Positions 1-17,636 of a stretch of DNA of 64,000 bases are shown here, one piece after another. Source of the DNA: Gracilariopsis chorda. Taxonomy: Eukaryota > Rhodophyta > Florideophyceae > Gracilariales > Gracilariaceae. Below the pieces are notes generated by a model. That model saw only the letters and a program-made list of their open reading frames with translations, was not told the origin of the DNA and did not search any database. The DNA is taken from assembly GCA_003194525.1 (NCBI GenBank), contig NBIV01000011.1, forward strand, positions 1 to 64,000, read 5' to 3'. Positions within the stretch are counted from its first letter, which is position 1, and each line of letters starts with the position of its first letter. The translations under genes were made by a program, and so were the position numbers.

Positions 1-498
1 TATAATGTCCCTTAGCAGGGTGTTCGGCGATAACTCCGACGTTGCCGTGCGCTGTCCTAGTGGCCGCTGCTCATGCGGGAAATATCCCTCAAGAGGGTAT
101 GTGGTGTCACGGTTTTCCCCGGCAAGTCATTCCCCATTGGGGTGTCGTTGTTCCCGTCTTCACGGTAGGCCAGGCGAAACGCCAACCGGCGGGGGACTTG
201 AACTCCGCATTCGCGGTTGAACTCACGAACCGCGAGTTTGCGGGAAGATGACCGCTCCTGCGGAATCGGCGTTTCCACGATCCCCTGGGGGGTCCCGTGC
301 GGCACGGTGGTTGGATGGCAAACCGCCTCCCTGCCAGGCGCACGAGCGCTCTGCACCGTACGTTCCGGCGGCGCCGTGGTGTCCCCGGCTACTGGGGGGT
401 TGCCTAAGGCTAACTCCGGTACACCGGTATTTTGGTCAAAATTCCCTTTGGGGGGTGCCGGGCAGGTGCCGATGACACCCTTTTCAGGGGCCTGGCCG
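1..498 (-). other. Non-coding 3' region of the gypsy element
   Basis: No credible coding frame. The stretch follows the pol stop codon in element orientation and should be 3' untranslated sequence leading to a 3' LTR outside the window. It is full of short perfect inverted repeats, for example CCCTTAGCAGGG (9-20), CCCTCAAGAGGG (86-97), CCGTCTTCACGG (154-165), CCGCATTCGCGG (205-216) and CCGCTCCTGCGG (252-263). Confidence 0.6.
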
Positions 499-3400
499 CT
501 AAGTGCGGTGCACCGTCTCCATGAGGAGGAGCAGCGTCCGGTACGACCGGTTTCGAGCGTGCGATGGCGCGCGTTTTTCCCGAGTTCCTCGGTTCTTCGC
601 CGCAGCGTTGCGGTAGTTGGCGCAAATTATTCCCCGGAACGGGGGCTTCGATTCCGTCTGCGACGGGGAGCGTTTCCGAGCGCTGCGCGCCAGGGCCTGA
701 AGCTTCGGATGCGGCTTGGCTACCCTTTTCCCCGATAGGGTGTGGGTATTTCCCAGCGGCGCTGGTGTATCTGGGCGCCTCTTCTCCGCGGGGCGCGGGT
801 CTGAGCGACCTGATTGAACCGCTCCCGCGGGGACTTCCGCCAATGGCGGCTTTGAGGCATCTCCCTGCTCAGGGGATTGAGGGCGATTGTCGCCGTACTC
901 CCGTATCGGGGATCCTTCCCTGACAGGGGTGTGCGGTAGCTGCGTTTCAGCTTCCCGTGTAACACGGTGTATTTGCCGCCTTTGCGGGACCTGTGCGTCT
1001 GGTTCCTGTTGCACAGCGCTGCCCGAGGACGGGGGATTAGTGTCGCGTGAGATACTCCGTGCTCCACGGTCAGTTGTCCGTATGGTACGGCGTGTTTCCC
1101 GTTGCGACGGCGATCTCATTCCTCGAAAACGAGTGTTCTCCTCCCCCTCCTGAGACGGAGCGGCGGGATAAGGGATAACATGCCCCGCCTGGCGGGTGTA
1201 GATTCGCGCCATAGGGGCGGGCACAGAGAGGCCCGAATTACCCGGCTGAGCCGGTGAGTCCGACAGGGTCGGTAGGTCTGAGAGTCCCCGGGAGGGGTGT
1301 GGTAGCACGGTAGGCCGTCTCACCACCGATGTATCGGATGCAGAGCCATATTCCAGCGTAGGGTCCAGCGTAGCTGGTGCAGCCTCAGTCGAGGGTGGCG
1401 GAGCTAGCACGATGCGATCGCGAGATAACCGCTCATGCGCGTCACCCATTTCCACAACCACTGTGTCCGTCGTGACGGAGATAACCTTGAAAGGACCATC
1501 CGCCACAGGCGAGAGCTTATGGTGCTTCTCCTTTTCAGGGTTGTAGTACTCCTTGCGGACGAATACGAAGTCCCCGGAGTTGATCTGTTCCGGTTTGCCT
1601 CCTCGCAAGCGAGCATCGAAATTCCGTTTGTAGACGGCTTGGGCGTGGTCCATCGCCTCCCGCGCTGCGGGTACCAGCTTGGTCAGCCATGCTTTCCACT
1701 TCTGGCGGTAATCCTTCACAGAAGGGAACGCGTCCAACGTAGGTTGGGATTCCAACGCCATTGGCGGGGGTGTCCGTGAAAGGACCAACTCGAAAGGGGA
1801 TATTCCGGTAGTCCGGTGTACCTGCGTATTGTACGCAAAGGTCACGGCATCCGTGTAGATATCCCAAGTCTTGGGGTGGTCAGCCGTGTAAGCACGGAGA
1901 GCTGCGAGCATTGTCCGGTTGAAACGCTCGACCTGCCCATTAGACTGGGGATGATACGTGGTCGTGAAGAGATTCTTCACGTCCAGTATCCGACAGACGT
2001 CCTGGAAAAATCGCGATGCGAACTGTTTCCCGTTGTCGGAAAGTAGCTCCAAAGGAGGTCCGTAGGCAAACACCCAATGCCGCACAAAGGCGTGAGCGAC
2101 CGTGTAGGCGGTAATCCTCTTTAGAGGGACTGTCCGAACTAATTTCGAGAACCTGTCCGTAATAACGAGTAGGAACTTGTTGCCTCTCCTGGTAGAGAGC
2201 AATGGTCCGAGAATGTCAATTGCGACAAACTCGAGCGGCGCCCTGGCGGGGAATAGCTTCATCCGTTTGGAGTGCTTCCGGAGTTTGACCCGGTTCTTCG
2301 CGCATTGCGTGCAAAACCGCACCGTAGCGTAGCAATCAACCGCCATGGCGGGCCAGTAGAAATCCCTGCGAAGGGTTAGATAAAGCTTCCTCCCACCGGA
2401 GTGTCCCCCGAGTTTCGGGTAATGCGAAAGGTGCAATATCCGCTTCTGTAGCGTGTGCGGTACCACAACTTGTGGGGTAGCCTCGACGGTCCTCACGAGG
2501 TAACCAATGTCGTTCACCCCGAAGGGGAGGTTCTCTCCGCCGTTGAGGCGTGCACGTATCCTTGTACAGAAGGGGTCCCCGAATTGTTCTCGGATCATTT
2601 CCTCGGTCTCAACCGGTACATAATTTCCCGGTATGGGTTTCTCAGAATCGTCTCGCGATGCGAGTAGGTAGTCGAAGTCAGCATCTTCGTCCCAGTTTTC
2701 TGGCTCAGCCTCGACGGCACATTCCGGATCATCCGGGTCCATTGCCATGAAACATGGGACTTCATCATCCTCCGTTGGGAGTGCCTCCCCACTTGTGGGT
2801 AAACGCGACAGAGCGTCGGCTTGGGTGTTCTGCGCGCCCTTTTTATAAATGACTTGGAAGTCATATTCCGCGAGGCGGAGTCTCCAGCGCATGAGGCGTC
2901 CCGACGGGTCGGAGATATTCATTAACCACCTCAGTGAGGAATGATCCGTGTACACGGTGAAATGGACTCCCATAAGGTAGGGGCGCAGAGTGGTCATCGC
3001 CCATACGACGGCGAGGCACTCTTTCTCCGATACGGAGTAGTTCCGCTCATGGACATTGAGCGAGCGCGACCAATAACCAATTGGGTGTCGTTCCCCCTCG
3101 GGGGTGGTTTGAAAAAGAGCACACCCGACTTGGTAGTCGCTCGAGTCCGTATCTACGGAGTATGGCAACCCAAGTTTTGGGAGATGTAGGATTGGTGCTG
3201 ATGTGACAGCCTCCTTCAAGGAGTTAAAGGCTTCCGATTGCTCGGGCGTAAATGTTCCCAGTTTTGGGGGGTTCCCCTTTCGCAACAACGCGTTCAGGGG
3301 CGCTGCAGTATCCGAAAAGTTCGGGATAAACCGTCGATAGACGTTGACCAGCCCCAGAAAGGAGCGCAGTTCCGTTTGAGTACGGGGTTCTTTCGCCTCA

Positions 3401-5319
3401 ACGAGGGATTTGACTCGAGCTTTCTCGATCGCTAACCGTCCAGGACGGATAATGTGACCCAGATACTTCACAGTATCTGTGAAAAACTCGCATTTCCTCA
3501 ACTTGAGGGTAATTCCCGCATCGCGGAGTACGGTCAGCACGTCTCGGACGTGAGTGAGATGGTCGTCCAACGAGTTGGAGAAGATGATAATATCATCAAG
3601 GTAGACCAGACAACTCCGCCATTTAAAGCGGTTGAGTAGAATATCTACTGCACGCTGAAAGGTGGCGGGGGCGTTGGTTAACCCAAATGGCATCCGCTTG
3701 AAGCGGTACGTTCCTGCATGGCAGGTGAATGCGGTTTTGTCGCGATCCTCCTGTCTGACAGGTACTTGCCAATATCCCCAATTGGCATCAAGGGCCGTGA
3801 ACACGGTGGCGTCTCCAAGGGAGTCAATGCACTCGTCCATACGAGGGATGGGGTACGTGTCCCTAACAGTCACGGCATTGAGCCGGCGGTAGTCGACACA
3901 GAACCTCCAGGTTCCGTCAGCCTTTAAAGCCAGTACAACTGGGGATGCCCAGGGCGATTGAGCGGGCTCAATCACACCTGCGCGGAGCATCTTGTCCACC
4001 TGGGACTGCTCCTCTTCCCGAGCTTTCGGACCTGCCCTGTAAGGGGGTTGTGCAACCGGTCGCGCACCGGGGATTAAATCGATCCGGTGTTCCGTTGCAT
4101 CAATCTCGCCAAGCGAGCCATCCCACATTGTGGTGAATTCCCGTAACATAGTACGGAGTTTGTTGCGGTGCGACTCTGGCACGTGGCTGAAGTCCAGCGC
4201 TTCAAGTGCTTTTTCCGGATCAATCCGGTCATTGCTCGATGGAGCATTGTCCTGTGGAACAGGTGTGGTTCGCAATTCCGAGTTACTCGGTATGTTCGAC
4301 GCTGAAGTAGCGGTTTCCTCCCCCTCCTTAGACTTGACGTCTTCGGACGGCGGGGTGAACTCCTCAGAAGAGGTGGTAACTCCGAGTACATCGGCGGCTG
4401 TCATCTTCGTTGGCAGCATTCCCATAGGATGGGGGGTTACACTCCCAATTACTTGGTGTTTGACCAGATACTGGGGGTGTTTGCCAAGGTTGGCAACCAA
4501 TATCCGGAAAGGAACATCCGGGGAAATGGAGACAATTCCATTAGCCAGCGCCAGCTGGGATTTCTCGTACAACGAGGCGAGGGGTTGTATAACCCGAAGA
4601 CCGTGTTGACGGGAATTTACCTGTACCCAGACTTGGGACTCAGCCGGTATAGAAACCGAGGCAGCGACGCGGAGCTTGGTGGACTCGCGGGACGCGGGCG
4701 GTGGTTCCTGCGCAGCAGGGAGCGGAACTTGTTTCCGAGAGGACCGCTTTAGCGGGCGGCGAACAATCGGAACCGACGATCCGTCGTCAAGTTCTACACG
4801 CCTGAGGCGGGGCCTGATTGCGTCGACAAATCTGTCGCAGTAATCACATCCCAGTATGACTGGTGCTGCCAGTGAACGGCAAACGATGAAGTCCAACTTC
4901 ACCACAGATGTACCAAGTCTCACGACGAGGTCCACTGTGCCCACCGTTTGTAACGGATTGTTGTTCGCATCCGAAATGTCGGGGACCGCGTCAGAGCGGA
5001 TACGCGACCGCACAAGCGGGGGTAACAATGATTCCACGACAAAGTTGGGGCCTGCACCTGTATCCAGGACGGTGAGAAACCTCACCATAAACTGGGGGTC
5101 AAGGCCAAGGTCGGCATAGACCTTATAATTGCGCTTGGCCAAGACCAAGACTCTACCGGGAATCCGGGGATTTTTACTCCGTATCCACGGGCGACGCAAC
5201 ACACCGAGGTGCGCAGAGTCCGCGTCAGCGGTGTCTTTCCTCGAGAGGACTTTCACCGGGGAGCGAGGCGAGGACGCCTCGGGCGCCAACAGCCTCGTTT
5301 TTGAGGACGCCTCTCCCAA
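499..5319 (-). CDS. pol: Ty3/gypsy Pol polyprotein (protease, RT, RNase H, integrase)
   Basis: 1606 codons, uninterrupted. Visible in order: an aspartic protease active site DTGAG at residues 86-90; a reverse transcriptase with the YPIPR entry motif and the catalytic YLDD box near residue 573; an RNase H domain with a VDTDSSDY motif; an integrase with an HHCC zinc-binding region (GGHSGG followed by CTQCAK) near residues 965-1000; then a DDE catalytic core with AIDILGP, LSDNGKQ and NGQVERFNR. About 330 residues follow that are rich in Ser, Pro and Arg, with no recognisable chromodomain. The ATG lies 17 bases past the gag stop and in a different frame, so Pol needs frameshifting, reinitiation or processing of a longer transcript. 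All catalytic motifs look intact. Confidence 0.95.
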   Translation of the reverse strand: MGEASSKTRLLAPEASSPRSPVKVLSRKDTADADSAHLGVLRRPWIRSKNPRIPGRVLVLAKRNYKVYADLGLDPQFMVRFLTVLDTGAGPNFVVESLLPPLVRSRIRSDAVPDISDANNNPLQTVGTVDLVVRLGTSVVKLDFIVCRSLAAPVILGCDYCDRFVDAIRPRLRRVELDDGSSVPIVRRPLKRSSRKQVPLPAAQEPPPASRESTKLRVAASVSIPAESQVWVQVNSRQHGLRVIQPLASLYEKSQLALANGIVSISPDVPFRILVANLGKHPQYLVKHQVIGSVTPHPMGMLPTKMTAADVLGVTTSSEEFTPPSEDVKSKEGEETATSASNIPSNSELRTTPVPQDNAPSSNDRIDPEKALEALDFSHVPESHRNKLRTMLREFTTMWDGSLGEIDATEHRIDLIPGARPVAQPPYRAGPKAREEEQSQVDKMLRAGVIEPAQSPWASPVVLALKADGTWRFCVDYRRLNAVTVRDTYPIPRMDECIDSLGDATVFTALDANWGYWQVPVRQEDRDKTAFTCHAGTYRFKRMPFGLTNAPATFQRAVDILLNRFKWRSCLVYLDDIIIFSNSLDDHLTHVRDVLTVLRDAGITLKLRKCEFFTDTVKYLGHIIRPGRLAIEKARVKSLVEAKEPRTQTELRSFLGLVNVYRRFIPNFSDTAAPLNALLRKGNPPKLGTFTPEQSEAFNSLKEAVTSAPILHLPKLGLPYSVDTDSSDYQVGCALFQTTPEGERHPIGYWSRSLNVHERNYSVSEKECLAVVWAMTTLRPYLMGVHFTVYTDHSSLRWLMNISDPSGRLMRWRLRLAEYDFQVIYKKGAQNTQADALSRLPTSGEALPTEDDEVPCFMAMDPDDPECAVEAEPENWDEDADFDYLLASRDDSEKPIPGNYVPVETEEMIREQFGDPFCTRIRARLNGGENLPFGVNDIGYLVRTVEATPQVVVPHTLQKRILHLSHYPKLGGHSGGRKLYLTLRRDFYWPAMAVDCYATVRFCTQCAKNRVKLRKHSKRMKLFPARAPLEFVAIDILGPLLSTRRGNKFLLVITDRFSKLVRTVPLKRITAYTVAHAFVRHWVFAYGPPLELLSDNGKQFASRFFQDVCRILDVKNLFTTTYHPQSNGQVERFNRTMLAALRAYTADHPKTWDIYTDAVTFAYNTQVHRTTGISPFELVLSRTPPPMALESQPTLDAFPSVKDYRQKWKAWLTKLVPAAREAMDHAQAVYKRNFDARLRGGKPEQINSGDFVFVRKEYYNPEKEKHHKLSPVADGPFKVISVTTDTVVVEMGDAHERLSRDRIVLAPPPSTEAAPATLDPTLEYGSASDTSVVRRPTVLPHPSRGLSDLPTLSDSPAQPGNSGLSVPAPMARIYTRQAGHVIPYPAAPSQEGEENTRFRGMRSPSQRETRRTIRTTDRGARSISRDTNPPSSGSAVQQEPDAQVPQRRQIHRVTREAETQLPHTPVREGSPIREYGDNRPQSPEQGDASKPPLAEVPAGAVQSGRSDPRPAEKRRPDTPAPLGNTHTLSGKRVAKPHPKLQALARSARKRSPSQTESKPPFRGIICANYRNAAAKNRGTREKRAPSHARNRSYRTLLLLMETVHRT

Positions 5320-5336
5320 AGGGGAGACTCCCTCAG

Positions 5337-7511
5337 TTAGTTTTCCGCCTTCGGCGGTGGGTTGGTTTCCTCGACAACGAGTGCTTCATCCCGTTGACGG
5401 GGGTTTCTATCCGCATAAGCGGGGGTTGCAACGGATGGTTGCGTGATCTCCCGAATCGGGGTGTATGAAGCTTGCCGCGCACGCGGGGTCTGTGGTAGGG
5501 CGTGAGAAAAGTCCGTTTTAGCACGGAGGTAGGAAGCCGTCGGGACGGAACGTTTCTCCTCTGGAGTGAGGGCCTCATAATTTGCCACCACCTTGGCCAT
5601 ATCCTTCAGTGAACAAATACACTGAGGAGAGGTATGGCCATGGGCATAGCACAGGTGGCAAATGAGAGCCAGCACCGCGACACGCGGATTATTATTCCGA
5701 GTATCGGAGAAGCGAACCGCAGGGCGGGTGTCAGTCCATCCAGGCCGTTGATAACGGGATTGACCGTTTGAAAACGGGAGTCGTTGGGGTTGAACCCGAC
5801 TGTTACCACCGTATAGAACGGGATCTTCTGTTCCCGTATCATGGGTCATCTCCGTCGTTGACGGTAACTCACTGGTGGGTATCGACACACCATCCCCCTG
5901 CGCTAAATGCACGGTATCAAATCCCTGTCCAGGGTTCCCATCCGCGGTGAGCGGGAGAGAGGAAGCTTCGCTTTCCAGCAACAACGCCTTGGCGGATTTA
6001 GACCGATTGTTCGGAGTTCTTGCACGAAGTGCATCCCCTTCCGCTCGAGCGTGTTGGACCAGCTCGAGGTAGGTGATCCTTCGCTTGTCCTCCCGATAAC
6101 GGTTAACTAAACTCCGGATTGCCGGGTCAAGACCATCAATGAACATGGTACTGCGCTCCCCAGCGGGGTATACGTTACCACATCTGTGGAAAGCCTTGTT
6201 AAGGCGCACCGAGTAATCGGTCTCGGTCTCTCCAGCACGCTGGCGTGTATCTCGCAAAGCGAGGATAGCCTGCTGAATAGCGGTGTTGGTGGCGTAGGAG
6301 CGCAGAAGATACTGCACAGCCTCCGGCCAGCAAGTAACTCCTCCCTCGGAGGCGCGAGAAGATCCTCGGACAGAGGTGTATTGGTCCTCGGCCACTCCCC
6401 GTAAGAAATACGGTAAAGCCAAATAGGCTTGTCCCTCATTCATACCGAGGATATCGGCCTCCGCTACAAAGCGGGATAGGAAATCCAGTACTAGGACTGG
6501 GTCCTCTCCAGTAAAATACTGGTTGCGGAGCGAGAGCTGCATTCGCTTAATGCATTCTCGCACCTTTCCCGTACCACGGGGCGTACGTCCAAGTGACGAA
6601 TCTTCAAGCCGGTAGTACCGGTATGATAAAAGCTTCCGATAATCCGGGTTTGTTGGTTTCAATTCCCGGAGACCGGGGTGTCTTCTCCCCTTCTGGCGGG
6701 TTCGGACCACACCTTCAGTGGCCGATGACCGCTTCGAGCGGGAGGAGTAGCCTCGCTTCTCGTCCTCCGAGTCGGAGTCCGAGGAGCTCGAGCTAACCGA
6801 ATGGTTTCGGGGTGAGTCCGACGATGTCGAAGAATCGGAGTCCGAATATTTTCGGTGATGTTTCCGTCGGTGACGGCGTTTCTTCTTCCCAGCAAGCTGG
6901 TCGTTGTGCGATGCCTCGTTTACCGGATCACCCGGGGATGGTTTGTCCATGAGGACGAACTGCTCCAGCGTCTCCAGGCGGGCACCAATCCGATCAAATC
7001 GGGCTTCAACTCCTTCGATGAAGGCGGCGGGTTGTCCCAAACTCTCCAACACGGAGTTGACGTCAGACCGTAAAATACGGAGCTCCTCGGCGACCTCCTT
7101 TACGGGGGTTGCCGAGACCACCTCTTGGAGGGATTTTAGTTCCCCTACAAGGGTGTCATGGGCAGTCCACAGAGCGCGGACCTGGGATTCCAGGGAAGTT
7201 CCCTGGGGGGTGTTATCACCCGTTCCACGGGGGCTTGAAGCCGCGACAGCGGGAGCAGGCCGGGGTGCCTGGGGCACTGCGGCAACAGCCGGAGTCGATG
7301 CTGCATTCCCCTGCGGGGGTGATAACGAGGGCAAAAGGAGGTTCCGGGGTTCCCGGTCGGGGGTATCATTCCGCGATGAAGCGGCGCCAGCAAGGCTGGA
7401 ACTTGTCCGTATAGGGATACGGGGTACGAACCGAACTTCGGAAGAGTCCGCGTTGTCGCGGGAGCGACTACGCGTAACCACTGGCTCCGCGTCGGAGGGA
7501 TTTCTCGACAT
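5337..7511 (-). CDS. gag: Ty3/gypsy Gag protein with CCHC zinc knuckle
   Basis: 724 codons. The N-terminal 200 residues are low complexity (Ser, Pro, Arg) with a helical segment; then comes a Lys/Arg/Ser-rich stretch with an SDSD-type acidic serine run. The middle (about residues 300-480) resembles the retrotransposon Gag capsid domain, with a YFTGEDP start and a conserved helical core. Near residue 613 there is a zinc knuckle of the form CX2CX4HX4C (CHLCYAHGHTSPQC), which binds element RNA in this family. It is upstream of pol and in a separate frame. The start was taken as the first Met of a frame that closes upstream. Confidence 0.9.
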   Translation of the reverse strand: MSRNPSDAEPVVTRSRSRDNADSSEVRFVPRIPIRTSSSLAGAASSRNDTPDREPRNLLLPSLSPPQGNAASTPAVAAVPQAPRPAPAVAASSPRGTGDNTPQGTSLESQVRALWTAHDTLVGELKSLQEVVSATPVKEVAEELRILRSDVNSVLESLGQPAAFIEGVEARFDRIGARLETLEQFVLMDKPSPGDPVNEASHNDQLAGKKKRRHRRKHHRKYSDSDSSTSSDSPRNHSVSSSSSDSDSEDEKRGYSSRSKRSSATEGVVRTRQKGRRHPGLRELKPTNPDYRKLLSYRYYRLEDSSLGRTPRGTGKVRECIKRMQLSLRNQYFTGEDPVLVLDFLSRFVAEADILGMNEGQAYLALPYFLRGVAEDQYTSVRGSSRASEGGVTCWPEAVQYLLRSYATNTAIQQAILALRDTRQRAGETETDYSVRLNKAFHRCGNVYPAGERSTMFIDGLDPAIRSLVNRYREDKRRITYLELVQHARAEGDALRARTPNNRSKSAKALLLESEASSLPLTADGNPGQGFDTVHLAQGDGVSIPTSELPSTTEMTHDTGTEDPVLYGGNSRVQPQRLPFSNGQSRYQRPGWTDTRPAVRFSDTRNNNPRVAVLALICHLCYAHGHTSPQCICSLKDMAKVVANYEALTPEEKRSVPTASYLRAKTDFSHALPQTPRARQASYTPIREITQPSVATPAYADRNPRQRDEALVVEETNPPPKAEN

Positions 7512-8411
7512 GAGAAAATACCGTTACGACGGGGAACGATCACGGAACTTCCGGTGAATGAAAACAAACCTCGTAAGAGGGAGAACAAAAACCGATTCTA
7601 GGTCGGGAGACCACTTTGTGGTGCAATGCCCCAAAGGGGAGAAACACCGAAAGACGTCCGGGATCTTCCTCTCACGAGGTGAACCCAGTTGGGTAGAGCC
7701 CTCCCAGAGGTGTCACGGCGAAGCCGGTTTGTAAGACCAGGGACACCTGTCGCGACTCGCGCAGGGAGGTGAAGGCGAAGAATCGGTATCCGCGTGAGCG
7801 GGGTGTGATCCTCAGTAGAGGTATGTTTCCACGTAAGTGGGGGTGTGTGAGCGGATGCGCACACGAGGGCCGCGGATAGCGGGAGGGGCTACCCTAAAAA
7901 GGGGAAAGAGGAAGGACGAGTGGGTCGCGAGAGCGACGAGTAGATACGGCAATGCCGGTGGACAGGACTCCCTATACAGGGCGAAACACCAATATGATTG
8001 GAACAATTAGTACTCCCAATGATGGGTCTCCTTTAGATGTGCAAGGGGGGTGAACTTCCGTACGCTACGGTGCTTCCCTCCAAGGAGGAGTTGAGAACAC
8101 GCGGAGGCGGTAAAGCTCAGAGCCAATTCCCCAGGTTGGGGTCCCTTGTTGGGGAAGGTTTACTGGTGCGACGGCAGTGCGCCGTCGCACTAAGTACTAG
8201 CTTCCCAGAAATGGGTGTGAAAATAATAAATAAAATTAACTAAAATACTCCACATTCCGTGGCAACATCCACTACTGTGGCCAACCGCCAATTGACCCAA
8301 AACCGTGTCCCACGTGTCCATACCCACCATTGTGGGGCGTAGTCCATATACACACTACACAACCGATAATATCGGGAAAGCGTTCAAGTACCCAGAATCC
8401 CTCCCTGAGGG
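7512..8411 (-). other. 5' leader and probable 5' LTR of the gypsy element
   Basis: No coding frame of interest. By position this holds the 5' LTR, primer-binding site and untranslated leader of the element. I could not place the LTR ends or primer-binding site with confidence. The segment is very rich in short hairpins and includes the strongest perfect palindrome of the element, a 10-bp stem with a 5-nt loop at 8,166-8,190 (arm GTGCGACGGC). Confidence 0.55.
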
Positions 8412-9287
8412 CGTTGCACTTCACAACCGCTTCAAACCTAACTTTATCACGCTCCGCCTTCTCCATTTCCCGCGCGACATGTTCGTCACGCGGCATAAGC
8501 GCAGCAGCCAAAGATTCCAATCCCGAAGAACTAATGCGACTGTTGTCAGGTCTTGCGCGTTTCGATCTAGACTGTGATACTGCGGGAGATCCAAAACCAT
8601 GCTGTGACACTTGTACACCAACTCCAGCTTCCTGTTTGAAATCACTTCGCAGCGCTCGAGTACAAAGCGGTTCCATAATTCGATGTAAACGAAGAAAAAA
8701 AAAGCATACATAATATAGATCTCACCGTCTGCGTAGCTAACAAAAGCTTCAAGATCTCCCTGACCTGATGCTTCGTACCTTGTTACACATGTTCCGTATA
8801 GACTTTTGAACTCCGCAAACTTGCGTTTAAGAATACCACCATCTCGTAAATGACTACGATTTGCTGGATTGATTGAACATATATCATCGCAAGTCACACC
8901 TCCACTTACTACGGAGATCGGCTCTGGCCGAAAATCAGGATCGTTGAATAGTGGGGCAATTGTTTCGGACCATGGGTCTTCCCTTTGCTTGTCGAGCTCT
9001 ACTCTTTTCATGCAATCCATGAGCTTTTCCCGAACGGAAACCATCCGAGCATCCACTAAAAAATGCAGTAGTCGACAGAAATCTACCGCCTCAAACGGCG
9101 GTCTACACTGAAGTTGAGAAACAGAAGCGGACTTTTCAGCTCCAAGCGGAGGTTCTCCAATAACGATTTCACCATCAATGAAAACAGGTATATCGCCCTT
9201 CACCCATATCACTTCCTCATGGTCGCGAGCATTGCGCTTGATTTGTACAGTTGTGTTTCGTAGTCCATTAACAAATGCGCAATCCAA
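8412..9287 (-). CDS. Uncharacterised protein, 3' part probably truncated by the retrotransposon
   Basis: Not recognised. The open frame from 9,287 runs to about 8,726, where an AGACG|GTGAG donor-like site occurs. An AG at 8,655-8,656 would rejoin the more protein-like downstream frame (ending in a charged, probably helical segment with EMEKAERDKVRFE), giving a 71-bp intron. If so, the native C-terminus is lost where the gypsy element begins (about 8,411) and the reading frame runs on into element sequence to 8,272. The protein has no signal peptide or membrane segment that I trust. The upstream part (9,416-9,694) may be another exon of the same gene. The intron model is inference. Confidence 0.4.
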
Positions 9288-9415
9288 GCTACTAGTGTCT
9301 CCACAACCATCAATTAGCTTAAAAATTGTCTATAAGCTTACCTTTCGTTGTACCATTTTCGTTGCTAGAACTTTGCGCTAAGTAGCCAGTTTTGCGTTTT
9401 GTGCGTCTACAATAT

Positions 9416-9694
9416 TCAAAATTTGAGGGAAAGCTTGCAGTGGACGTTATCAAAGTGGCATTGGTCTAGAATTTGGATGCCATGCTCTACAATTTTCGGT
9501 ATCGTTAGCGATTGTTCTGCGATGTCGGTTTTCTTTCCAGTAGTTGCTGTCTTGTCATCACTCGCTTGCTTTGGTGGGTCTTTATCGCCGTCATTTTGAG
9601 CGTCAGTTGTAGATAAGCGCGCGTGCGCTGGTGGGGAAAACGAGTTCATGTTCTTGAATGTCACGGAAAACGTGGCATTCACTATGGAAGACAA
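9416..9694 (-). CDS. Uncharacterised ORF, possible 5' exon of the 8.4-9.3 kb gene
   Basis: 92 codons; Asp/Lys/Thr-rich middle, no recognised domain. It lies in the same orientation just upstream of the 9,287 ORF. A consensus GTAAGC donor at 9,341 and CTAG acceptors at 9,292/9,289 lie between the two, but none of the combinations I tried keeps one frame open across the join. Either an exon was missed or the gene is broken. Low confidence that it is expressed. Confidence 0.3.
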   Translation of the reverse strand: MSSIVNATFSVTFKNMNSFSPPAHARLSTTDAQNDGDKDPPKQASDDKTATTGKKTDIAEQSLTIPKIVEHGIQILDQCHFDNVHCKLSLKF

Positions 9695-10170
9695 TTCGGA
9701 ACACGGTTTCCGTTTTGTGGGGACTGCAGGCGCTGGTGGGTTGCAGTCGGAAGCGGAAACTGGAAACGAACGTATTCAATGTGTGATCTTCTGATTGGGT
9801 ATCTACTGATTACCGATTTCGAGTTCAGAATTTCGTCAACTCATGGAACGCCCCTTATTCATGGTCTGTGCTTTCAAGAATTAGAGATTATGTGCCAGCC
9901 TTTTCTTTTTTGTCGACACTCTGTACAGAGCAAAATTATGTTCTCGACAGAGCAGTCTAATCTCCAAGATGGGTTTTTAAGGCTCTTAGTATCGACAGAT
10001 GTACGATTTTGAAGCTGTGTGGGGGTTAGAAGTAATTCACGACTTGATCTAGAAAACCCACATGCCGTGTAGACGAACGAAGTGTTGTGTTTGCCAGGGG
10101 AAGGATCTTGTGAAACGTTGTCCCGGCGCTCTAATATGGAACCAATCAGGACGAGTCTTCGAGACGATGA
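9695..10170. other. Intergenic stretch, nothing recognised
   Basis: Short overlapping ORFs on both strands without protein-like features; no RNA gene, repeat or element end seen. Confidence 0.5.
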
Positions 10171-10803
10171 TCACAACACAATTAGAAAGTGTTTCGTTGG
10201 GGGGTGGGGTTTGTCGGAACCGGGCGAATGATCTGGCGGTATTTTTGGTTCGGTCCCGGCACAACGACCTGGAAAATCTCTGGAATGGGGCGACGAGGGC
10301 TGGTTTTGAAAGGCTCGAAGGACAGGCTGGTTCACAGAAAACTTATCACAATATACGAAATGTCGATCAAATGGAGCTGGCCACCGACTGTTGCGGCCCC
10401 CGGTGGAGATGCTCTGAGCGAATCCAAAATTGTGGACTGAATTTTGATTTTGACGTTGCCCAAATGTAGAATGCGCCCTCGGTAGGACGTATTCGGACAA
10501 CTGACTCTTGAGGGTCTGTGACGGTACAAAGGGACATAGACTTAGTCAAGATTGTCCGTCCTGATAAGGTTGTAGCCGATCCCTCATCAGGTCATTTTCC
10601 TGCGTCACAGCAGTGAGACGGTGTCTTGAACATCCAAGATGTTCCTGTGCTATCCATAACGAAGTAAGTTGTTCATGAGTTGGCGTACGATTTTTCTGCG
10701 ATGCGTTGGTGATGTCAAACTGCTCTCCGAGGACGCATGGGCCCCTCAGCTGCCCTGAATCAGACGTCCACAATTCCGTCTGATTCATAACGGCATTCAA
10801 CAA
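10171..10803 (-). CDS. Possible low-complexity protein gene, structure unresolved
   Basis: Two successive minus-strand frames look somewhat protein-like: 10,546-10,803 (85 codons, Gln/Thr-rich, predicted helical) and 10,171-10,500 (Asn/Gln/Ser/Pro-rich). They would need an intron or a frameshift to join and I could not find a convincing splice pair. Function unknown. It may be a gene fragment or chance ORFs. Confidence 0.25.
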
Positions 10804-11019
10804 CGCCTATCAGCGCGAATGTGGAGTATATCGGCATATTGATGAACCAAGCCGAGTTTCACGCCATTCGGGAGGCTTGGGTGGGGCACTTCGTTTCAAT
10901 GCGGCATAATTATGAGATCTGAAACGCGAACACCATCCACTCAACTTCTTTGATCCACTTAACACTTGCTAACCGATCGTTTTCTTTCCGCCGTTGTACT
11001 CTTTTAGAATGCCGCCAAC

Positions 11020-11526
11020 ATGGCGCAGAGTAGCACCGGCTCAAAGTGGGTGACCACTAGGACGCATCTTCAAATCAGTCAATCACAAGTACTTCCAGTG
11101 ATATTCCGCTCTAAAAGAGTATCCAATCCGACCACATCACTGATGTCGCAATCTGGGCCCGCAGCTAACCACCACACACCCTCAGCATTCCCTCCAACCG
11201 AGCTGCAGTTTTCCGATTCTCTTCTCGTTCTCCAACAATGGCTTCTGGATCATATTGAGAGAATCTATCGCATTGGCTCGATGAACACCAAACCTGGCGC
11301 CTTGGAAACTGCTCAGGTCTTGATTGAATCAAACCGCCGATTCACCGTATGGTTTGAACCGACACACGCTTATTACTCACTTCTGCATCCCCGTGAGTCG
11401 TTTTACAAGGATAATCATTCAGATCGCAGACCAAGCATAGAAGAGGATCAAGGTAATGAATCGGACTTTGAAACGTATGCGACAACGCCGCAAACTCTCT
11501 ACGTAGTCGCTGAAACAACTGAGTGA
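11020..11526 (+). CDS. Uncharacterised 168-residue protein
   Basis: The ATG has a favourable context (A at -3, G at +4). The N-terminal 60 residues are Ser/Thr/Pro-rich and look disordered. Residues 65-130 look folded, with a helical leucine-rich segment (SDSLLVLQQWLLDHIERIY) and an aromatic stretch. The C-terminal 40 residues are acidic. No family recognised. It is convergent with the isomerase gene that ends at 11,605. It could lack an additional 5' exon. Confidence 0.5.
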   Translation: MAQSSTGSKWVTTRTHLQISQSQVLPVIFRSKRVSNPTTSLMSQSGPAANHHTPSAFPPTELQFSDSLLVLQQWLLDHIERIYRIGSMNTKPGALETAQVLIESNRRFTVWFEPTHAYYSLLHPRESFYKDNHSDRRPSIEEDQGNESDFETYATTPQTLYVVAETTE

Positions 11527-11604
11527 AATGGAAATGTGTGTACTGCTGGTTTACTACAACGAGACTTGCTTATGTTTTTTGTTGCGGTACCGCACGTTAA
11601 AGAG

Positions 11605-12900
11605 TTAGATCTGCTTCTGATTTATACTTGCTCGAAACAACACAAGTTCTGGTGATGCAGCACCTGAGACGGCTGAGTCGCACGCCTCAACCTGCACTGA
11701 GATACCGTCTGCGACATAATAGATACGTCCTGCTGAGAGTGCGTACTTCACATGTTTTTCTTTCTCAACGCTCTTGCGTGTCACCGCAATCCATCCATGC
11801 CCATCCATACACAAGATGATACTTGCTCCCTTCAGTCCTGGCAAGACTTGTTTCTTACCAGTCGGAATGACACTCTTAATAAGTTGAAATTCTTCCACGG
11901 GCGGTTCATAAAGCATGGAAAACTCATCGAGGGCATCACCATTCATGATGGTCGGATACGCATCCTGGTAGGTAAGCATATCAACCAAAGTAGAAACATC
12001 CTTGAATTTGGGCGTAAGACCCGCTCGCACAACGTTGTCACTGCGTGCCATAATTTCCACACACTGACCTGCAAGGTATGCGTGCGGTTCATTGGCCGCC
12101 ATAAAGAAAGCCTGACCCGGTTGAATTTGCACGTAGTTCAGCAGGTACGCCGCAAAGCAGCCCACATCTCCCGGGTAATACTGCACCAAACGCAGGAAAA
12201 GCCTATCTGCATCCGTTTGCACTTTACGTGATTTGCGATCTTCTTCAATGCTGACGAGCGTTTCTTGAACGGAGTCGGCGGAGGCTGTCATCAACGTGGA
12301 AAATAAATGGCGAATGGCCTTCTTTCGGGAGATGGCATCTGTTGAAGTTGATAGAATAGAGTTCACGGATTCGGCATCACAAAGTTGGGCCATGTCTGGA
12401 AGCGCTTCCAAATGGGCTTTGATCTCTTCGATGGGTCTGAAGTTACACATTCCTTCGAACTGAGAAAGAGCAACACACATTTCCGGTTTATGATTATCAT
12501 CTTTGTAAGCAGACGGGTTTCTAGCGTGTAGTTCAGCAGCAAGCGTCTTATCCGGATGCGCCTGTATACTAAGCGGCTTCGCCACACTGAGAACTTTGAG
12601 AAGATATGGAATATCTGGCAGATCGTTCTTGCTCAGAAATTCGGACAATGACATGGGGGTCGATGAGATTAATTCAGCTGGTCCGTTTGGGTGTGTGCCG
12701 ATCCATAGTTCTGCGTATGGTTTCACCGTGGACACGGCCTCTCCAGAGTTGAGAGAGTGCAACCTCGCAACGAGGCTGTTAGCGCTAGAAGGTAGTCCCC
12801 AAGCATAATTTTGCACGGCGGCACGCAAGGGGATGAGTTTTTGGTCTTCAGGGATGGCGGCCATTTCGAAACGACAGAACCGGAACGGATGGACGGGCAC
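11605..12900 (-). CDS. PMI: Mannose-6-phosphate isomerase
   Basis: Type I phosphomannose isomerase, which interconverts fructose-6-phosphate and mannose-6-phosphate and feeds GDP-mannose synthesis for glycans, cell-wall polymers and low-molecular-weight carbohydrates. Diagnostic stretches are all present: QNYAWG near the N-terminus, AELWIGTHPNGP, the zinc-binding SIQAHPDK, the KPEM element and the EPHAY segment that supplies another metal ligand, followed by SDNVVRAGLTPKFKDV. 431 codons from the first ATG; an inner Met (MAAIPEDQK, ATG at 12,864) is at least as likely a start because homology begins just after it. Cytosolic by absence of a targeting signal. Intronless. Confidence 0.95.
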   Translation of the reverse strand: MPVHPFRFCRFEMAAIPEDQKLIPLRAAVQNYAWGLPSSANSLVARLHSLNSGEAVSTVKPYAELWIGTHPNGPAELISSTPMSLSEFLSKNDLPDIPYLLKVLSVAKPLSIQAHPDKTLAAELHARNPSAYKDDNHKPEMCVALSQFEGMCNFRPIEEIKAHLEALPDMAQLCDAESVNSILSTSTDAISRKKAIRHLFSTLMTASADSVQETLVSIEEDRKSRKVQTDADRLFLRLVQYYPGDVGCFAAYLLNYVQIQPGQAFFMAANEPHAYLAGQCVEIMARSDNVVRAGLTPKFKDVSTLVDMLTYQDAYPTIMNGDALDEFSMLYEPPVEEFQLIKSVIPTGKKQVLPGLKGASIILCMDGHGWIAVTRKSVEKEKHVKYALSAGRIYYVADGISVQVEACDSAVSGAASPELVLFRASINQKQI

Positions 12901-13045
12901 TCGGACAGGGCTTGGTCGACGAGGAAGACGGAAACGTCAGGATGGCAAAGCGGTAAGTGCGGTAGGTGCGGCAAGGTTATTGTTATTGCTGACGGTGCGG
13001 GAAGCAATACCATGTGTGATGCGATTGAAGAATCACACGTACGCA

Positions 13046-14227
13046 CTACGTGTAAAAGGCCATCTCACTACGACGAGTTTCCCAGGCGTCCATGCGCCGT
13101 CTCCACGGCGCCAGACATTCAGACGTGTCGCTGCGATCCAACTGGTCTATCGGCTCGCACTTGCTCACCTCCGCATCAATGGTACGATGCAGCTGCGCGA
13201 CATCACGATACAAGTTGTGAAACTCGAGAGGCGGGGGAGAAAGCGTGTTGACGAAGGTTTGCTCAAACCAGCGCACCATGAGCATCGTCTCCTTCAACAA
13301 CGCTTCACTCCGATGCACACGAAACGTGGCGCAACCTTCAGTAGAAAAGAGCACCACGTCAGCGAAGTGCACATCGCTCACCGCCGCGGCGAGCAGCGCC
13401 TCCAGAAAGAGCCTTGCAGGTAGTCGAGAAGGAAGATGCATAGCACCCGTCTGGCAACGACCGCCTCCTAAGCGACGAAACTCCGGAAGTGCATGCACTA
13501 ATAAAACGCTGTTCATTTCTTTTCTCCAATTCCAAAAGTCATGCTCATCACGTTGCAAAACCGAAGCAACAGGCGTGGCAAACAAACGTTGATAAAGGCC
13601 GTCACCAAGCACAATTCCCTGTTCAAACAGTCGCACCGCAAGCGTCTCTCGCACAGAAAGATGTGCTACGCTTCTCCACATCTTTTGGCGCATGTGCAGA
13701 TAAAGAAAGATTCCATTCGACAGCCTTGCCAACTGAAATCGAGTTGAGTAGTCCCTCTTCGCAGCTGTCTCTTCCGCCGCGCCTACCGCACGTCTCCACG
13801 CGCGCAGGGAAGCTTGATGCGCTTTATGTCGTTCCGCTCCGCCGAGATACGTCCACACATCGCTTGCACGCAAATGCAACAAACGCATAGCAGACTGACG
13901 AGCTTCACTTTCTGGACGCAACCGACGCAAGTCATACACAGAGTTCACTTGTACGCTTGCGGCTGGAGGCAGTGCCATAAAAGCATTATGCGCCCGTGCA
14001 TAGCGCATTGGAATGCCCTTCCAGTAAGGGTTGCGTCTTGACAAAGTGCCCCTTTCAACGGTCACTTTCGCTTCGCTGTTCTCTGGCTGTATCTGGCTTT
14101 CACTTTCTTTCTTGGGACGTCGGCCTTCTCTCTTGACCCGCGCGCGCGGGCTCGCTGAAGATCTCGCATCCCATCGCGCACCGCATGTACGCGACACCAC
14201 TGCCACGCCTGTTACAAAGCTGGCCAT
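13046..14227 (-). CDS. Uncharacterised, probably plastid-targeted protein
   Basis: Not recognised. The frame is open from 14,341, but the Met at 14,227 (MASFVTGVAVVSR) begins a Ser/Ala/Arg-rich leader with few acidic residues that resembles a plastid transit peptide, so I choose it. It is followed by a basic, Lys/Glu-rich linker and about 270 residues of predicted mainly helical sequence (for example LFLEALLAAAVSDVHFADVVLF), with many Arg and no membrane span I would rely on. It is divergent from VPS18 with a gap of about 270 bp, which could be a shared promoter. No catalytic motif seen. Confidence 0.7.
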   Translation of the reverse strand: MASFVTGVAVVSRTCGARWDARSSASPRARVKREGRRPKKESESQIQPENSEAKVTVERGTLSRRNPYWKGIPMRYARAHNAFMALPPAASVQVNSVYDLRRLRPESEARQSAMRLLHLRASDVWTYLGGAERHKAHQASLRAWRRAVGAAEETAAKRDYSTRFQLARLSNGIFLYLHMRQKMWRSVAHLSVRETLAVRLFEQGIVLGDGLYQRLFATPVASVLQRDEHDFWNWRKEMNSVLLVHALPEFRRLGGGRCQTGAMHLPSRLPARLFLEALLAAAVSDVHFADVVLFSTEGCATFRVHRSEALLKETMLMVRWFEQTFVNTLSPPPLEFHNLYRDVAQLHRTIDAEVSKCEPIDQLDRSDTSECLAPWRRRMDAWETRRSEMAFYT

Positions 14228-14496
14228 GCTTCGTTCCCCCACGTCGAGCGTGATCCCATCTGATGGGTCTGTGATCATCAGAACCATCGCTAAATTCAGC
14301 ACGCAACAAGCAACAGAAAAACCGCTCCACGTGGCGAACAACGGCTGGCTGGGGCATCTCAGCGCTACGTGTCGCGCCGCGCTTCCGCTATAACTACCCA
14401 GTTAACAAATGTGACCAAGGAGCGCGACGTCATACACTTCACGCCATCGCCATCGCCTCTTGCCAAAGACGAAAGCGCACAAGCGCCTTTACCGCA

Positions 14497-17400
14497 ATGC
14501 CGTCCGTCTTCCGTTTAGAGCCGTCTTCAACGCGTCTCCAACTTGCCCCGGACGACGTCGTCACCTGCGTAGCCGCCACAGCAGGCTTACTATGGGTCGG
14601 AACTAGTTCCGGTCGTCTCCTCAGGCACCGCACTCAAACCGATCACACCGACGAAGTGCGTGGCCGTCTCGGCGTTGGTCGTCTTGACAACCCCGTCGAG
14701 CGCATCTTCGCAGACCCCCACTCCCACGCCGCTCTCATCCTACTTAAAAACGCCTACGGATACTACGCACACCCCACCGCGCCCTTACGACCCCGCTGGC
14801 TCGCCAAGTTACGAGGGCTGCGATGCGTTTCCGCTGCTTGGGTTCGCCTGCAGCCTACTGCTAAAACACAGCTTCATAGTGTCGCTTTGTTGGGTACAGC
14901 TTATGGCGCTTTGTTTTCTCTCTCCATAGATGACAAATACGAACGCGATGACTCGCTCGCAAAGCTGTGGTCAGCGCCTAACGGACAGCGTATCGACGGC
15001 ATTCGCGTCGAAAACGTCGCTTCCAAGTTCGTTGGAACAGTTGCTACAACCACTGCACTCTACCTCTTCTCCGACGCAGACACCCTTCCAGACCTGTTTC
15101 ATCCCTCCCGCATGACCGTTCTCTCCCGACCGGATATGCCGCCCTCCGCCTCTGCGGAGCAGATCGTCCTTCCGTCCGAGCTGCAGTTCATGACCGGTTC
15201 GTCCGGTCTCGCCTCGCGCCGTTTTGTGTGGGCCGGCTCGCAGGGCGTCACCCATGCGCAACTCGCCGTTCGCCGCCGTCCCACACAGCGTGTTGCAAAA
15301 AGTGAAGAAAAGCACAGTGCTCCGCTTCCAAAGTCCACTGTCATTGCCTCCATTGTCGATACAGAGAGCATTTCCTGGGCGACTCTCCAGAGCGCATCAC
15401 TCTCTTCCGTCCCGCTAGCCTGTAATCTATCCGCCTTCCACGTCCTCGTCTTGTACCCGGGTAGCGTTTACGCCTTCAATCATATTTCAGGACGCCTCAC
15501 TCAAAGGGTCATTTTATGGACCCCCGAACCGCCATCGCCCGTCTCGCAACCCGCACAAACAGAGCGCAAATTCAACGCATCGCGATCAACAACTCGCGCC
15601 GCGTCACCACCACCCGAGCTGTCACGAAACAGTCGGGAAGAAACTCAACCCGTAAAATATCTCTCTTCACCTGCAGCCGGTTTCGCACGCGACGTACTTA
15701 CAGATACTCTATGGGTGTATACAACAGACGGCGAATTCACGCGTCTGGTCGCATCCAACGAGGAGTACACCGAAGCCTGGAAGGCTGCAAAGAGCATGGG
15801 TAAATTTGAATTAGCAATGGCACTTGCCCCGCATGTGTCCAGCGGCTTGTCGGATGATTCGGCAACGCTTCAAACGCAGGAGGCCGTGCGCGAAGCGCAA
15901 GCGGACCATGAAGTCGAGAAGGGAAACTGGGACATTGCTGCCCAATTGCTTGCCAAGACGAAGCGACCTGTCGAGTCGGTGTTGCTTAGCATTGTTGAAG
16001 CTAATGCCGCGTCGACGGTTTCCCGGACGAAAAGTACGGTGAAGGGGGAGGTGAAGCTGGATAATCTTGGCATCGGACAGAAAAGAGAGATGGCCAAGCA
16101 TATGATTACTTATCTGGTACGTCGACTCGATCGCATGGACTCGACGCAGCCGATGCAACGCGCCATCATTGCTACGATGCTGGTGCAGCTGTACTCGTTG
16201 CGACTGTCATCCGAGACGGATGAGGGCGTTCGAGAGGAAGTACGAAAAGATTTTGGACACTTTCTAGCAGACCGCCACCAGGACTTGGACACGGGCACAG
16301 CCCTAGACGTGCTGAACCGCAACGCGTGTCACGAGGAAGCGTGCAAGCTCGCAGAGCTGTCAGGTGACGTGGTGCAAGCATGCAAATTGCTGTCTCGACG
16401 AGGCAAAGTGGATCAAGCTCTGGCTCTACTGAAACACCATAGCGTTGTGAGCGACAATGACACTTTAAGCCAGCTAATCGTGAGCATGTCAAACTGTTTA
16501 ATTGGCATAGCGCCGCAAAAAGTGACCAACGCCATCTCACGCGCGCTGAAAAAAGACTGGCAGCAACACATCAACTATATGACGGTGGTACAAGCGCTGG
16601 CGCGCGTGGCACGCGAAGCGCAGCAAGCTGAAAGGTGCAAAGAGGCGTATGTTGCGGCTGTAGGCTTTCTGTACGAGCTGTTACACGATTGGAGGGATGT
16701 AAGCGACGGTGACAAAGCGGCGGAGGTTGGAGTTAACGGAACGAGCCGACATGAAGAATGGTACAACGTGGTGACATTGCTGTTTCAGTTGCACGCTGAA
16801 TTTGGAAGTGAGAGTGAGGCACAGCGATCGTACGAGCACTTGGTGGCGGGGCGCGTTGAGAGCGGTTCTCGAGGGCAGCAGGTTGAGCGGGCTGTGGGAG
16901 CGATTGTGAGGTGCGCTCAGAATGCGGGGTTCCGGCGGTTGTGCGTGTACGTGTACCAGGCGCTAGGGCTGCACGAGACGGCGATAGAGCAGGCGGTGGA
17001 CATAGACGTGGAGCTGGCCGAATGCAAAGTGGCACAACTGGGTGCAAGTGAGATCGGAGAGAAGAAGCATAAGTGGCTGTGGTGTCTGGTGGCGGGGCGG
17101 AGCGAGGACGCGGTGGGGGTAGTGGAACGTAGCAAGGGGGTGCTTCACATTGAGGACGTGCTAACGAGCATGGGCCAGTTCGAAAGCGCGAGTGAGCGGG
17201 TGAAAATGGCGGTGGCGGACTCGCTGGAGGAGCACAAACGGGCGGCGAATTCGGCGAAGAGCGAGGCGACGGCGGCGTTGGAGGTGATCAACAGCGTGAG
17301 GGAGGACGTGAAGAGGGCGCGCGCTTGGCAGCAGGCGCGCGTGATCCAGCGGCACCGACAGCGCTATCGCGCGTTCAGCTGCGGGCACAAGGCACGGGTG

Positions 17401-17541: not shown

Positions 17542-17604
17542 GCATTTTTTTTCTTTTTTCCTTTTTTTCCTTGTGTGTGTGCAACGCTATGCATGAGGTG
17601 GATC

Positions 17605-17632
17605 GGGGGGGGGGGGGGGGGGGGGGGGGGGG
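17605..17632 (+). repeat. Poly-G homopolymer, 28 G
   Basis: An uninterrupted run of G between the VPS18 stop (17,541) and the convergent bZIP-like gene stop (17,637). The length may be unreliable in the assembly. Confidence 0.8.
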
Positions 17633-17636
17633 CGGG

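What the first reader, a model, noticed from the sequence alone, without database searches (positions are those of the whole stretch)
1..8411. A whole gypsy retrotransposon saturated with short perfect inverted repeats about every 24 bp
Seen directly: between 3,025 and 3,649 (inside pol) I count about 25 perfect inverted repeats, with centres roughly 3031, 3053, 3080, 3098, 3132, 3152, 3175, 3203, 3217, 3239, 3262, 3318, 3378, 3401, 3421, 3442, 3469/3475, 3502, 3521, 3545, 3572, 3590, 3617, 3642; mean spacing near 24 bp. Ten have stems of 6-7 bp (for example CCGTCCAGGACGG 3436-3448, CCTCAACTTGAGG 3496-3508, CACGTC-TCG-GACGTG 3538-3552), where about one is expected by chance. The same density and spacing occur in the non-coding left end (14, 31, 71, 91, 105, 137, 159, 178, 210, 229, 257), in gag, and in the leader. 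It stops at about 8,411. In VPS18 (15,901-16,250) I found no stem of 6 bp or more, and the gypsy relics at 53-62 kb do not show it. So the signal belongs to this element and is independent of reading frame. Possible causes (inference): selected RNA folding for packaging or for escaping silencing, a dimeric DNA-binding protein reading regularly spaced palindromes, or template switching by the reverse transcriptase that perfects quasi-palindromes. I know of no described retroelement like this.
Basis: partly seen in the sequence, partly recalled or inferred. Interest (0 to 1): 0.93.

Follow-up and report, generated by a model that had tools for sequence, protein, structure and literature searches.

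The report
Retrotransposon built from evenly spaced hairpins
A family of mobile elements in a red seaweed carries a short, perfectly base-paired hairpin about every 20 to 23 letters along its whole length, genes included, and evolution keeps the pairing while letting the letters change, which points to an unknown structural code laid over a whole genome parasite.

Summary
The minus-strand Ty3/gypsy element (window 1-8423) holds about 290 non-overlapping short inverted repeats of 11-14 nt with 4-5 bp stems. They are spread evenly through 3' UTR, pol, gag and leader/LTR and stop at the element's end. Counts exceed synonymous-codon shuffles by 8 to 26 SD. Modal spacing is 20-23 nt. All 20 copies examined show it, as do three diverged host families and one foreign contig; nine other gypsy groups, five Copia and five DDE loci do not, bar one weak excess (L047). 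Between two copies 313 substitutions apart hairpins number 119 and 123, where random change leaves 73. Private mutations do not create hairpins above chance, so selection fits better than mutation bias. Internal pairs are strictly Watson-Crick: G:U is no better than A:C. That argues against one-strand RNA-stability selection and suggests that both strands, or DNA, must fold. My best guess is one docking site per Gag in the particle, needed in RNA and cDNA; RNAi evasion is the main rival. Function is inferred, not shown.

The parts
1..8423 (-). Ty3/gypsy element (family F1), cut at the left by the contig start; the hairpin array covers all of it
   Evidence: Right end: of 41 other scored matches to window 7500-8700, 39 that cover the query start end at 8423-8427, one at 8432, and one partial match ends at 8423. 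Density 7-11 hairpins per 250 nt from 1 to 8250, 6 in the bin that holds the end, then 0-4
7512..8423 (-). Leader with 5' LTR; the sense strand starts TG at 8423. A partial second match begins at 7897, so the LTR may be about 7897-8423; its inner end is unresolved
   Evidence: 33 hairpins, 36.2 per kb
5337..7511 (-). gag, 724 aa, SR-rich stretch and a CX2CX4HX4C zinc knuckle (motif read by eye)
   Evidence: 76 hairpins, 34.9 per kb
499..5319 (-). pol, 1606 aa: RT (466-624), RNase H (690-819), integrase H2C2 (953-1010) and core (1027-1124)
   Evidence: 166 hairpins, 34.4 per kb
1..498 (-). 3' non-coding region (a 3' LTR would lie beyond the contig end)
   Evidence: 14 hairpins, 28.1 per kb; CC..GG stems >=4: 11 vs 1.5 expected
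3436..3448 (.). Example 13-nt unit, CC NNN n3 NNN GG
   Evidence: span 13 is the commonest, 86 vs about 8.5 per span at spans 19-40
538..550 (.). Example unit in the 3' part of pol (CCGGT acg ACCGG)
1057..1090 (.). Two neighbouring units 21 nt apart (CCGTG ctc CACGG; CCGTA tgg TACGG)

Best explanation
Shown: the element is a continuous array of small self-complementary units (4-5 Watson-Crick pairs, 11-14 nt long, mostly with a loop of at least 3 nt) at a modal pitch of 20-23 nt, and descent with modification keeps the units while letters change. Inferred from that: natural selection acts on pairing in single-stranded nucleic acid, and on both strands (or on DNA), because a G:U pair in one strand is an A:C mismatch in the other and both are rejected inside stems. 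Inferred, mechanism: each unit is a docking and condensing site for one Gag/nucleocapsid subunit inside the particle. The array would have to fold in the packaged RNA (sense) and again in the minus-strand cDNA (antisense) that replaces it, which would explain strict Watson-Crick pairing, near-constant unit size, even spacing, indifference to reading frame, and restriction to one clade of elements (which presumably share a Gag type; not tested).
For: Array, pitch and uniformity. Beyond coding constraint. Clade trait: families F1-F4 lie in one RT clade (contig L061 was too short for the tree); signal in F1 20/20 loci, F2 4/4, F3 1/1, F4 1/1 and L061 from another assembly. Preferred letters differ (F1 CC..GG, F2-F4 leaning to GCNG..CNGC) while size and pitch stay. 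Selection: 119 and 123 hairpins across 313 substitutions, null 73.3 +- 5.6, max 88 of 200; per-site change, both directions summed, is 3.8% in stems (79 of 2066) and 2.9% in the adjoining base (13 of 454) vs 8.2% outside (505 of 6138); private mutations near neutral. Both strands or DNA: in CC-N9-GG frames with two inner pairs matched, the third is Watson-Crick in 171 of 189 cells, G:U in 4, A:C in 4; pooled over five families, single internal mismatches sit at chance (G:U 0.92-0.96x, A:C 1.04-1.10x) against Watson-Crick 3.6-5.1x. In the A/B comparison broken pairs are sense G:U in 10 and A:C in 14 single changes. Hairpin geometry in F1: pairing inside a 3-nt loop is at chance and a 4-bp stem with a 2-nt loop is not favoured. 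[quoted passage not shown]
Against: No binding or structure data. The Ty3 figure is from a distant relative and could be coincidence; 21-22 nt is also the size of red-algal small RNAs. On the one 300-nt piece folded, the RNA fold is only modestly better than shuffles (z -2.6 sense, -1.6 antisense). Enrichment rises with the number of G:C pairs, but nearest-neighbour stacking, RNA or DNA, adds nothing in the expected direction (fitted signs were negative or near zero), which simple helix stability does not predict. Five-bp stems with one G:U at any position are enriched modestly (1.2-1.7x sense, 1.5-2.2x antisense, for stable bins) although not when the G:U is internal. Avoidance of longer stems is mixed: A:T and T:A flanks of F1 CC..GG units are avoided (8 vs 28.2), C:G flanks are not (13 vs 15.4), and at F1 span 12 flanks pair slightly more than expected (0.30 vs 0.25). 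The foreign contig L061 differs: odd spans favoured and palindromes with a 1-nt loop enriched (24 vs 7.9). Hairpin positions are only weakly shared between F1 and F2 (12 of 52, 7.2 expected) and not clearly between F1 and F3 or F4, so no single site seems essential. A strict RNA-helix-reading protein could also reject G:U without any role for the second strand.
Confidence: 0.35

Rival explanations
1. Evasion of RNA interference: both sense and antisense transcripts, and the small RNAs cut from them, fold on themselves, so that sense and antisense anneal poorly, Dicer lacks long duplex, and guide strands are self-structured.
For: Needs both strands, so strict Watson-Crick pairing follows. Modal pitch of 20-23 nt is close to red-algal small RNA size: most Chondrus small RNAs are 22 then 21 nt (PMC4872230, passages read). 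The host has two long Piwi-domain frames and two frames with paired RNase III domains.
Against: Maximal protection would favour hairpins as dense as possible, yet spacing below 16 nt is avoided. The other gypsy groups and Copia loci examined in the same genome lack it. No RdRP was found (that search had no positive control).
Confidence: 0.25
2. A DNA-only function: hairpins in single-stranded cDNA, or in chromosomal DNA when it is single-stranded, protect against nucleases or suppress recombination between copies.
For: Internal G:U rejected like A:C, as expected if G:T is a mismatch in DNA; the stem is the same on both strands.
Against: Confined, among the loci examined, to one retroelement clade; adjoining bases lean to A on the sense strand in F1 and F2, so the strands are not fully equal; 4-bp DNA hairpins are weak (general knowledge).
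Confidence: 0.2
3. Ordinary genome-wide RNA structure of the sense transcript (as in GORS-type RNA viruses), selected for stability.
For: Excess of stems; enrichment rises with G:C pairs, 0.6x at none to 6.0x at four; sense fold z -2.6 in the one 300-nt piece folded; 5-bp stems with one G:U have a modest sense excess of 1.2-1.7x in stable bins.
Against: For 4-bp stems with one G:U at -4 to -2 kcal/mol, 79 were seen and 77.7 expected, against about 4.5x for Watson-Crick stems of the same energy. Internal G:U is at 0.92-0.96x. Stems over 5 bp are less common than chance extension of 5-bp stems would give in F1 (my reading).
Confidence: 0.08
4. Mutation drive: reverse-transcriptase or polymerase template switching perfects quasi-palindromes.
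For: Explains perfect complementarity and lack of G:U.
Against: Private changes do not gain hairpins above chance (8 vs 5.3 +- 2.3); hairpins are conserved, not turned over, between subfamilies (10 lost vs 53.5); of 64 changed stem pairs (both directions summed) 49 are single changes and 9 are double Watson-Crick changes, where a drive would make doubles common; even spacing unexplained.
Confidence: 0.07
5. Binding sites of a dimeric DNA-binding (for example anti-silencing) protein.
For: F1 has a strong outer CC..GG preference.
Against: Inner bases vary but pair with each other: given two inner pairs in CC-N9-GG, the third is Watson-Crick in 171 of 189 cells against 50 expected from composition; a duplex-reading protein cannot demand that of arbitrary letters.
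Confidence: 0.03

Closest known systems
Dispersed packaging signals of ssRNA viruses (Twarock and colleagues, PMC6281560; abstract and outline read)
   Same: Many small RNA motifs spread through a genome, sequence-degenerate, proposed to bind the coat protein
   Different: Here about 290 units tile the whole element at a modal 20-23 nt, near-constant in size and strictly Watson-Crick inside; protein binding untested
Genome-scale ordered RNA structure (GORS) of RNA viruses (recalled; only a search listing seen)
   Same: Pervasive base pairing across a whole genome, frame-independent
   Different: GORS is, as I recall, an RNA-stability feature; here internal G:U is not tolerated and the excess sits in 4-5 bp stems
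VANDAL/VANC anti-silencing motifs of Arabidopsis (PMC5735166, start of abstract seen in the listing)
   Same: Dense short motifs in a transposon that co-evolve with it
   Different: A sequence-specific motif read by a protein (abstract and recall); here the letters vary and only complementarity is kept
Ty3 and other Ty3/gypsy (Metaviridae) elements
   Same: Gag with zinc knuckle, RT-RNase H-integrase order; Ty3 packs about 20 nt of RNA per Gag (PMC6525542, passages)
   Different: No array of this kind in nine other gypsy groups examined in this genome, though L047 has a weak excess (1.75x)

Membership tests
Ty3/gypsy LTR retrotransposon | RT, RNase H, integrase in this order in one pol frame | tested here: met
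Ty3/gypsy LTR retrotransposon | gag with CCHC knuckle upstream of pol | tested here: met
   Frame 5337-7511; CX2CX4HX4C read by eye in the translation; no Pfam gag model hit
Ty3/gypsy LTR retrotransposon | Two LTRs | tested here: inconclusive
   Right end starts TG and is shared by the scored copies; a left LTR would lie off the contig
Chromovirus | C-terminal chromodomain | tested here: not met
   No Chromo hit in pol at E 0.001, though many relatives carry PF00385
GORS-type RNA structure | Pairing that tolerates G:U as RNA helices do | tested here: not met
   one search agrees for 4-bp stems and shows a modest excess (1.2-1.7x sense) for 5-bp stems
GORS-type RNA structure | Fold energy clearly below shuffles along the genome | tested here: inconclusive
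   One 300-nt piece only, z -2.61 sense, -1.59 antisense
Dispersed packaging signals | Recurrent hairpins with a shared recognition motif | tested here: inconclusive
   Recurrent hairpins yes; shared letters within a family only
Dispersed packaging signals | Binding by coat/Gag protein | not testable with these tools
   No binding data in reach
Quasi-palindrome mutation drive | New mutations preferentially perfect palindromes | tested here: not met
   8 gained vs 5.3 +- 2.3 expected among private changes of 20 copies

The most novel reading that the evidence does not exclude
A retroelement clade carries a second, structural code laid over its whole genome: some 300 or more equal hairpin beads, about one per Gag subunit, written so that they fold the same way in the RNA and in the DNA copied from it. 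Many letters will do as long as they pair, so the protein code and the bead code evolve together in the same bases.
Probability: 0.3. Interest if true: 0.95.

Novelty: categorically new. Interest (0 to 1): 0.9.

Why it matters
No element that I know of, or found in the searches named here, is tiled end to end by near-equal, evenly spaced, strictly Watson-Crick hairpins kept by selection across coding and non-coding sequence. If they are Gag docking sites, this gives a readable packaging code in a reverse-transcribing element and a direct test of genome condensation in particles. If they blunt RNA interference, it is a new whole-genome way of escaping silencing. Either way it shows a dense constraint that codon-based analyses of transposon genes would miss, and it may offer a way to recognise this clade in metagenomes from DNA alone.

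Tried and rejected
Looked for the array in related DNA outside the host: three scans of IMG/VR gave no close relative (the two weak loci were not examined further), phages none and plasmids three distant records; genome contigs gave nine loci, of which L061 alone shows it. Rfam found nothing in 1-9000 at gathering thresholds, ARAGORN no tRNA in 1-20000.

Rejected or disfavoured: dimer binding sites, mutation drive, plain RNA stability, positional conservation of individual hairpins over long times. Nearest-neighbour stacking in RNA or DNA did not explain which stems are favoured beyond counting G:C pairs; I cannot yet explain this. A McDonald-Kreitman style comparison of singletons and fixed changes was equivocal: the deficit of fixed stem changes is clear, but in subfamily B singletons are also fewer in stems. 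An early mismatch count over all positions mixed stem edges with stem cores; refine it.
Full report
WHAT IS THERE. The window is the start of contig C11 of a 91.3-Mb genome. The host is a red alga near the Gracilariales: the window's adaptin is 69% identical to proteins of Gracilaria domingensis and Agarophyton chilense and 62% to one of Chondrus crispus. The element runs on the minus strand from 8423 to beyond position 1. It has gag (5337-7511), then pol (499-5319) with RT, RNase H and integrase, and a right end beginning TG that is shared by the scored copies.

THE ARRAY. Counting pairs of exactly reverse-complementary 5-mers by their outer distance, the element has 39, 36, 86 and 39 at spans 11, 12, 13 and 14, 20 and 18 at spans 15 and 16, and about 8.5 per span at 19-40; the rest of the window is flat. 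In this family the unit behaves like a hairpin rather than any palindrome: pairing inside a 3-nt loop is at chance and a 4-bp stem with a 2-nt loop is not favoured. Many units read CC-NNN-n3-NNN-GG or shorter. Within CC-N9-GG frames, if two of the three inner pairs match, the third is Watson-Crick in 171 of 189 cells against 50 expected from composition. A non-overlapping set holds 290 units, 28-36 per kb in 3' UTR, pol, gag and leader, falling to 8.4 per kb in 8424-9500. Centres are rare below 16 nt from each other, peak at 18-23, dip at 28-33 and rise weakly again around 36-46, a short-range order with a mode of 20 nt. Synonymous shuffles exclude a coding by-product.

WHO HAS IT. The RT search returned 86 scored matches out of 5007 candidates; I examined the 20 that were cut out, and all 20 show ratios of 5.9-7.1. 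A Pfam RNase H model gave 150 scored matches of 3091 candidates and 30 loci in ten groups: nine have ratios of 0.76-1.55, and the tenth (L046) has 3.6. L046 led to further families: F2 (L051, L052, L053, L055), F3 (L054) and F4 (L046), with ratios of 3.0-4.6. They share one RT clade with F1 and many metagenome proteins. A contig in a bacterial MAG (L061; 69% identical over 164 residues) also has it, at a ratio of 2.7; the other eight loci of that scan do not. Five Copia and five DDE transposon loci range over 0.72-1.36. By that second count 14 loci of the nine other gypsy groups range over 0.59-1.75; the highest, L047, is a possible weak case. Preferred letters differ between families, but modal spacings are 20, 21, 22.5, 22.5 and 23 nt.

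SELECTION. F1 has subfamilies A and B. Two real copies (L001, L005) differ at 313 sites of the aligned 4.5 kb, yet have 119 and 123 hairpins. Placing the same kinds of change at random leaves 73.3 +- 5.6, maximum 88 of 200. Losses are 10 against 53.5 expected and gains 14 against 6.2. Some units were rebuilt with other letters, for example CCAAC..GTTGG to CCAAG..CTTGG. Stems change at 3.8% per site and the adjoining base at 2.9%, loops at 6.4%, against 8.2% outside (both directions summed). In contrast, private changes of the 20 copies lose 33 hairpins (null 44 +- 6.5) and gain 8 (null 5.3 +- 2.3). So mutations hit hairpins nearly as expected, and the filter acts on lineages that go on spreading. 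Over longer times individual positions are mostly not kept: 12 of 52 F1 hairpins coincide with F2 hairpins against 7.2 expected, 7 with F3 (6.8) and 9 with F4 (6.5); F2 with F3 10 of 29 against 3.9. Density and spacing are what persists.

WHAT IS SENSED. Enrichment rises with the number of G:C pairs, from 0.6x with none to 6.0x with four in 4-bp stems, so base pairing matters. But nearest-neighbour stacking energies add nothing in the expected direction beyond that count. At equal predicted RNA energy, 4-bp stems with one G:U are not enriched on the sense strand (79 vs 77.7 at -4 to -2 kcal/mol), while 5-bp stems with one G:U show 1.2-1.7x in stable bins against 3-6x for Watson-Crick. On the antisense strand some bins are higher (93 against 32.7 in one). 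I read these excesses as stem edges, because for internal positions pooled over five families all mismatch classes are at chance (0.92-1.10x) against 3.6-5.1x for Watson-Crick, and flanking C and A of F1 units show no excess joint occurrence (36 vs 41.7). A requirement on both strands, or on DNA, predicts this most simply; a protein that reads RNA helix geometry strictly is not excluded. A:T and T:A flanks of F1 units are avoided (8 against 28.2), C:G flanks are not (13 against 15.4), and across families flank pairing ranges from 0.13 to 0.48 against 0.25, so a cap on stem length is likely in F1 and F3 but not general. L061 departs further: odd spans and 1-nt loops are enriched.

HOW IT MAY WORK. 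I prefer a model in which each unit holds one Gag/nucleocapsid subunit in the particle, first on RNA and then on minus-strand cDNA. It would explain both-strand pairing, unit size, pitch, indifference to frame and restriction to one clade. Ty3 packs about 20 nt of RNA per Gag (PMC6525542). None of this is shown here, and the number could be a coincidence: red-algal small RNAs of 21-22 nt (PMC4872230) give the RNA-interference model nearly the same figure, and the host has Argonaute and Dicer-like frames. My odds: array real, above 0.95; kept by selection, about 0.9; both strands or DNA, about 0.8; Gag docking, about 0.35.

NOVELTY. Searches of open-licence papers for hairpin-tiled or evenly spaced self-complementary retroelements found no description (listings only). 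The nearest ideas are dispersed packaging signals and genome-scale ordered RNA structure; it resembles both in spread but fails the G:U test of the latter, and Gag binding, which would define the former, is untested.

Noticed in passing
G000 contigs C483, C648 (L067), C777, C944, C882, C626, C317, C345, C785, C143: Besides two long Argonaute frames there are 44 more Piwi-domain matches (43 over the cut-off), many as oppositely oriented pairs a few hundred bases apart, several in units repeated every 7,980-8,008 bp. In L067 one frame matches Piwi (E 2e-11), an 83-nt inverted repeat (88%) has one arm inside that frame, and a DHHC-domain frame sits in the same unit. Could be a repeat that makes hairpin RNA against Argonaute.
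   Followed up: partly
G000: C573, C819, C883, C998, C1001 (about 5,680-bp steps); C225, C509 (about 6,350); C468, C582, C530 (6,044, Copia): Several other LTR element families sit in head-to-tail arrays with a constant step (seen in the tables).
   Followed up: no
L036, L038, L040, L041, L042, L044, L050: Loci of a hairpin-free gypsy clade show more 4-bp stems at odd spans (11, 13) than even ones (12, 14), for example 15, 4, 12, 6 in L050; L043 of the same clade does not. The foreign contig L061 also prefers odd spans. Perhaps a faint or older version of the trait.
   Followed up: no
L047: Another gypsy locus with a weak excess (65 vs 37.2 expected); its close relative L049 is at 48 vs 40.8.
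   Followed up: no
L061 (JALZUP010000409.1): Contig filed under a Robiginitomaculum MAG encodes a gypsy element related to this clade, probably contamination from a eukaryotic host (inference).
   Followed up: partly
G000 whole genome: Two frames with paired RNase III domains (C249, C12) but no PF05183 RNA-dependent RNA polymerase hit; that search had no positive control.
   Followed up: partly
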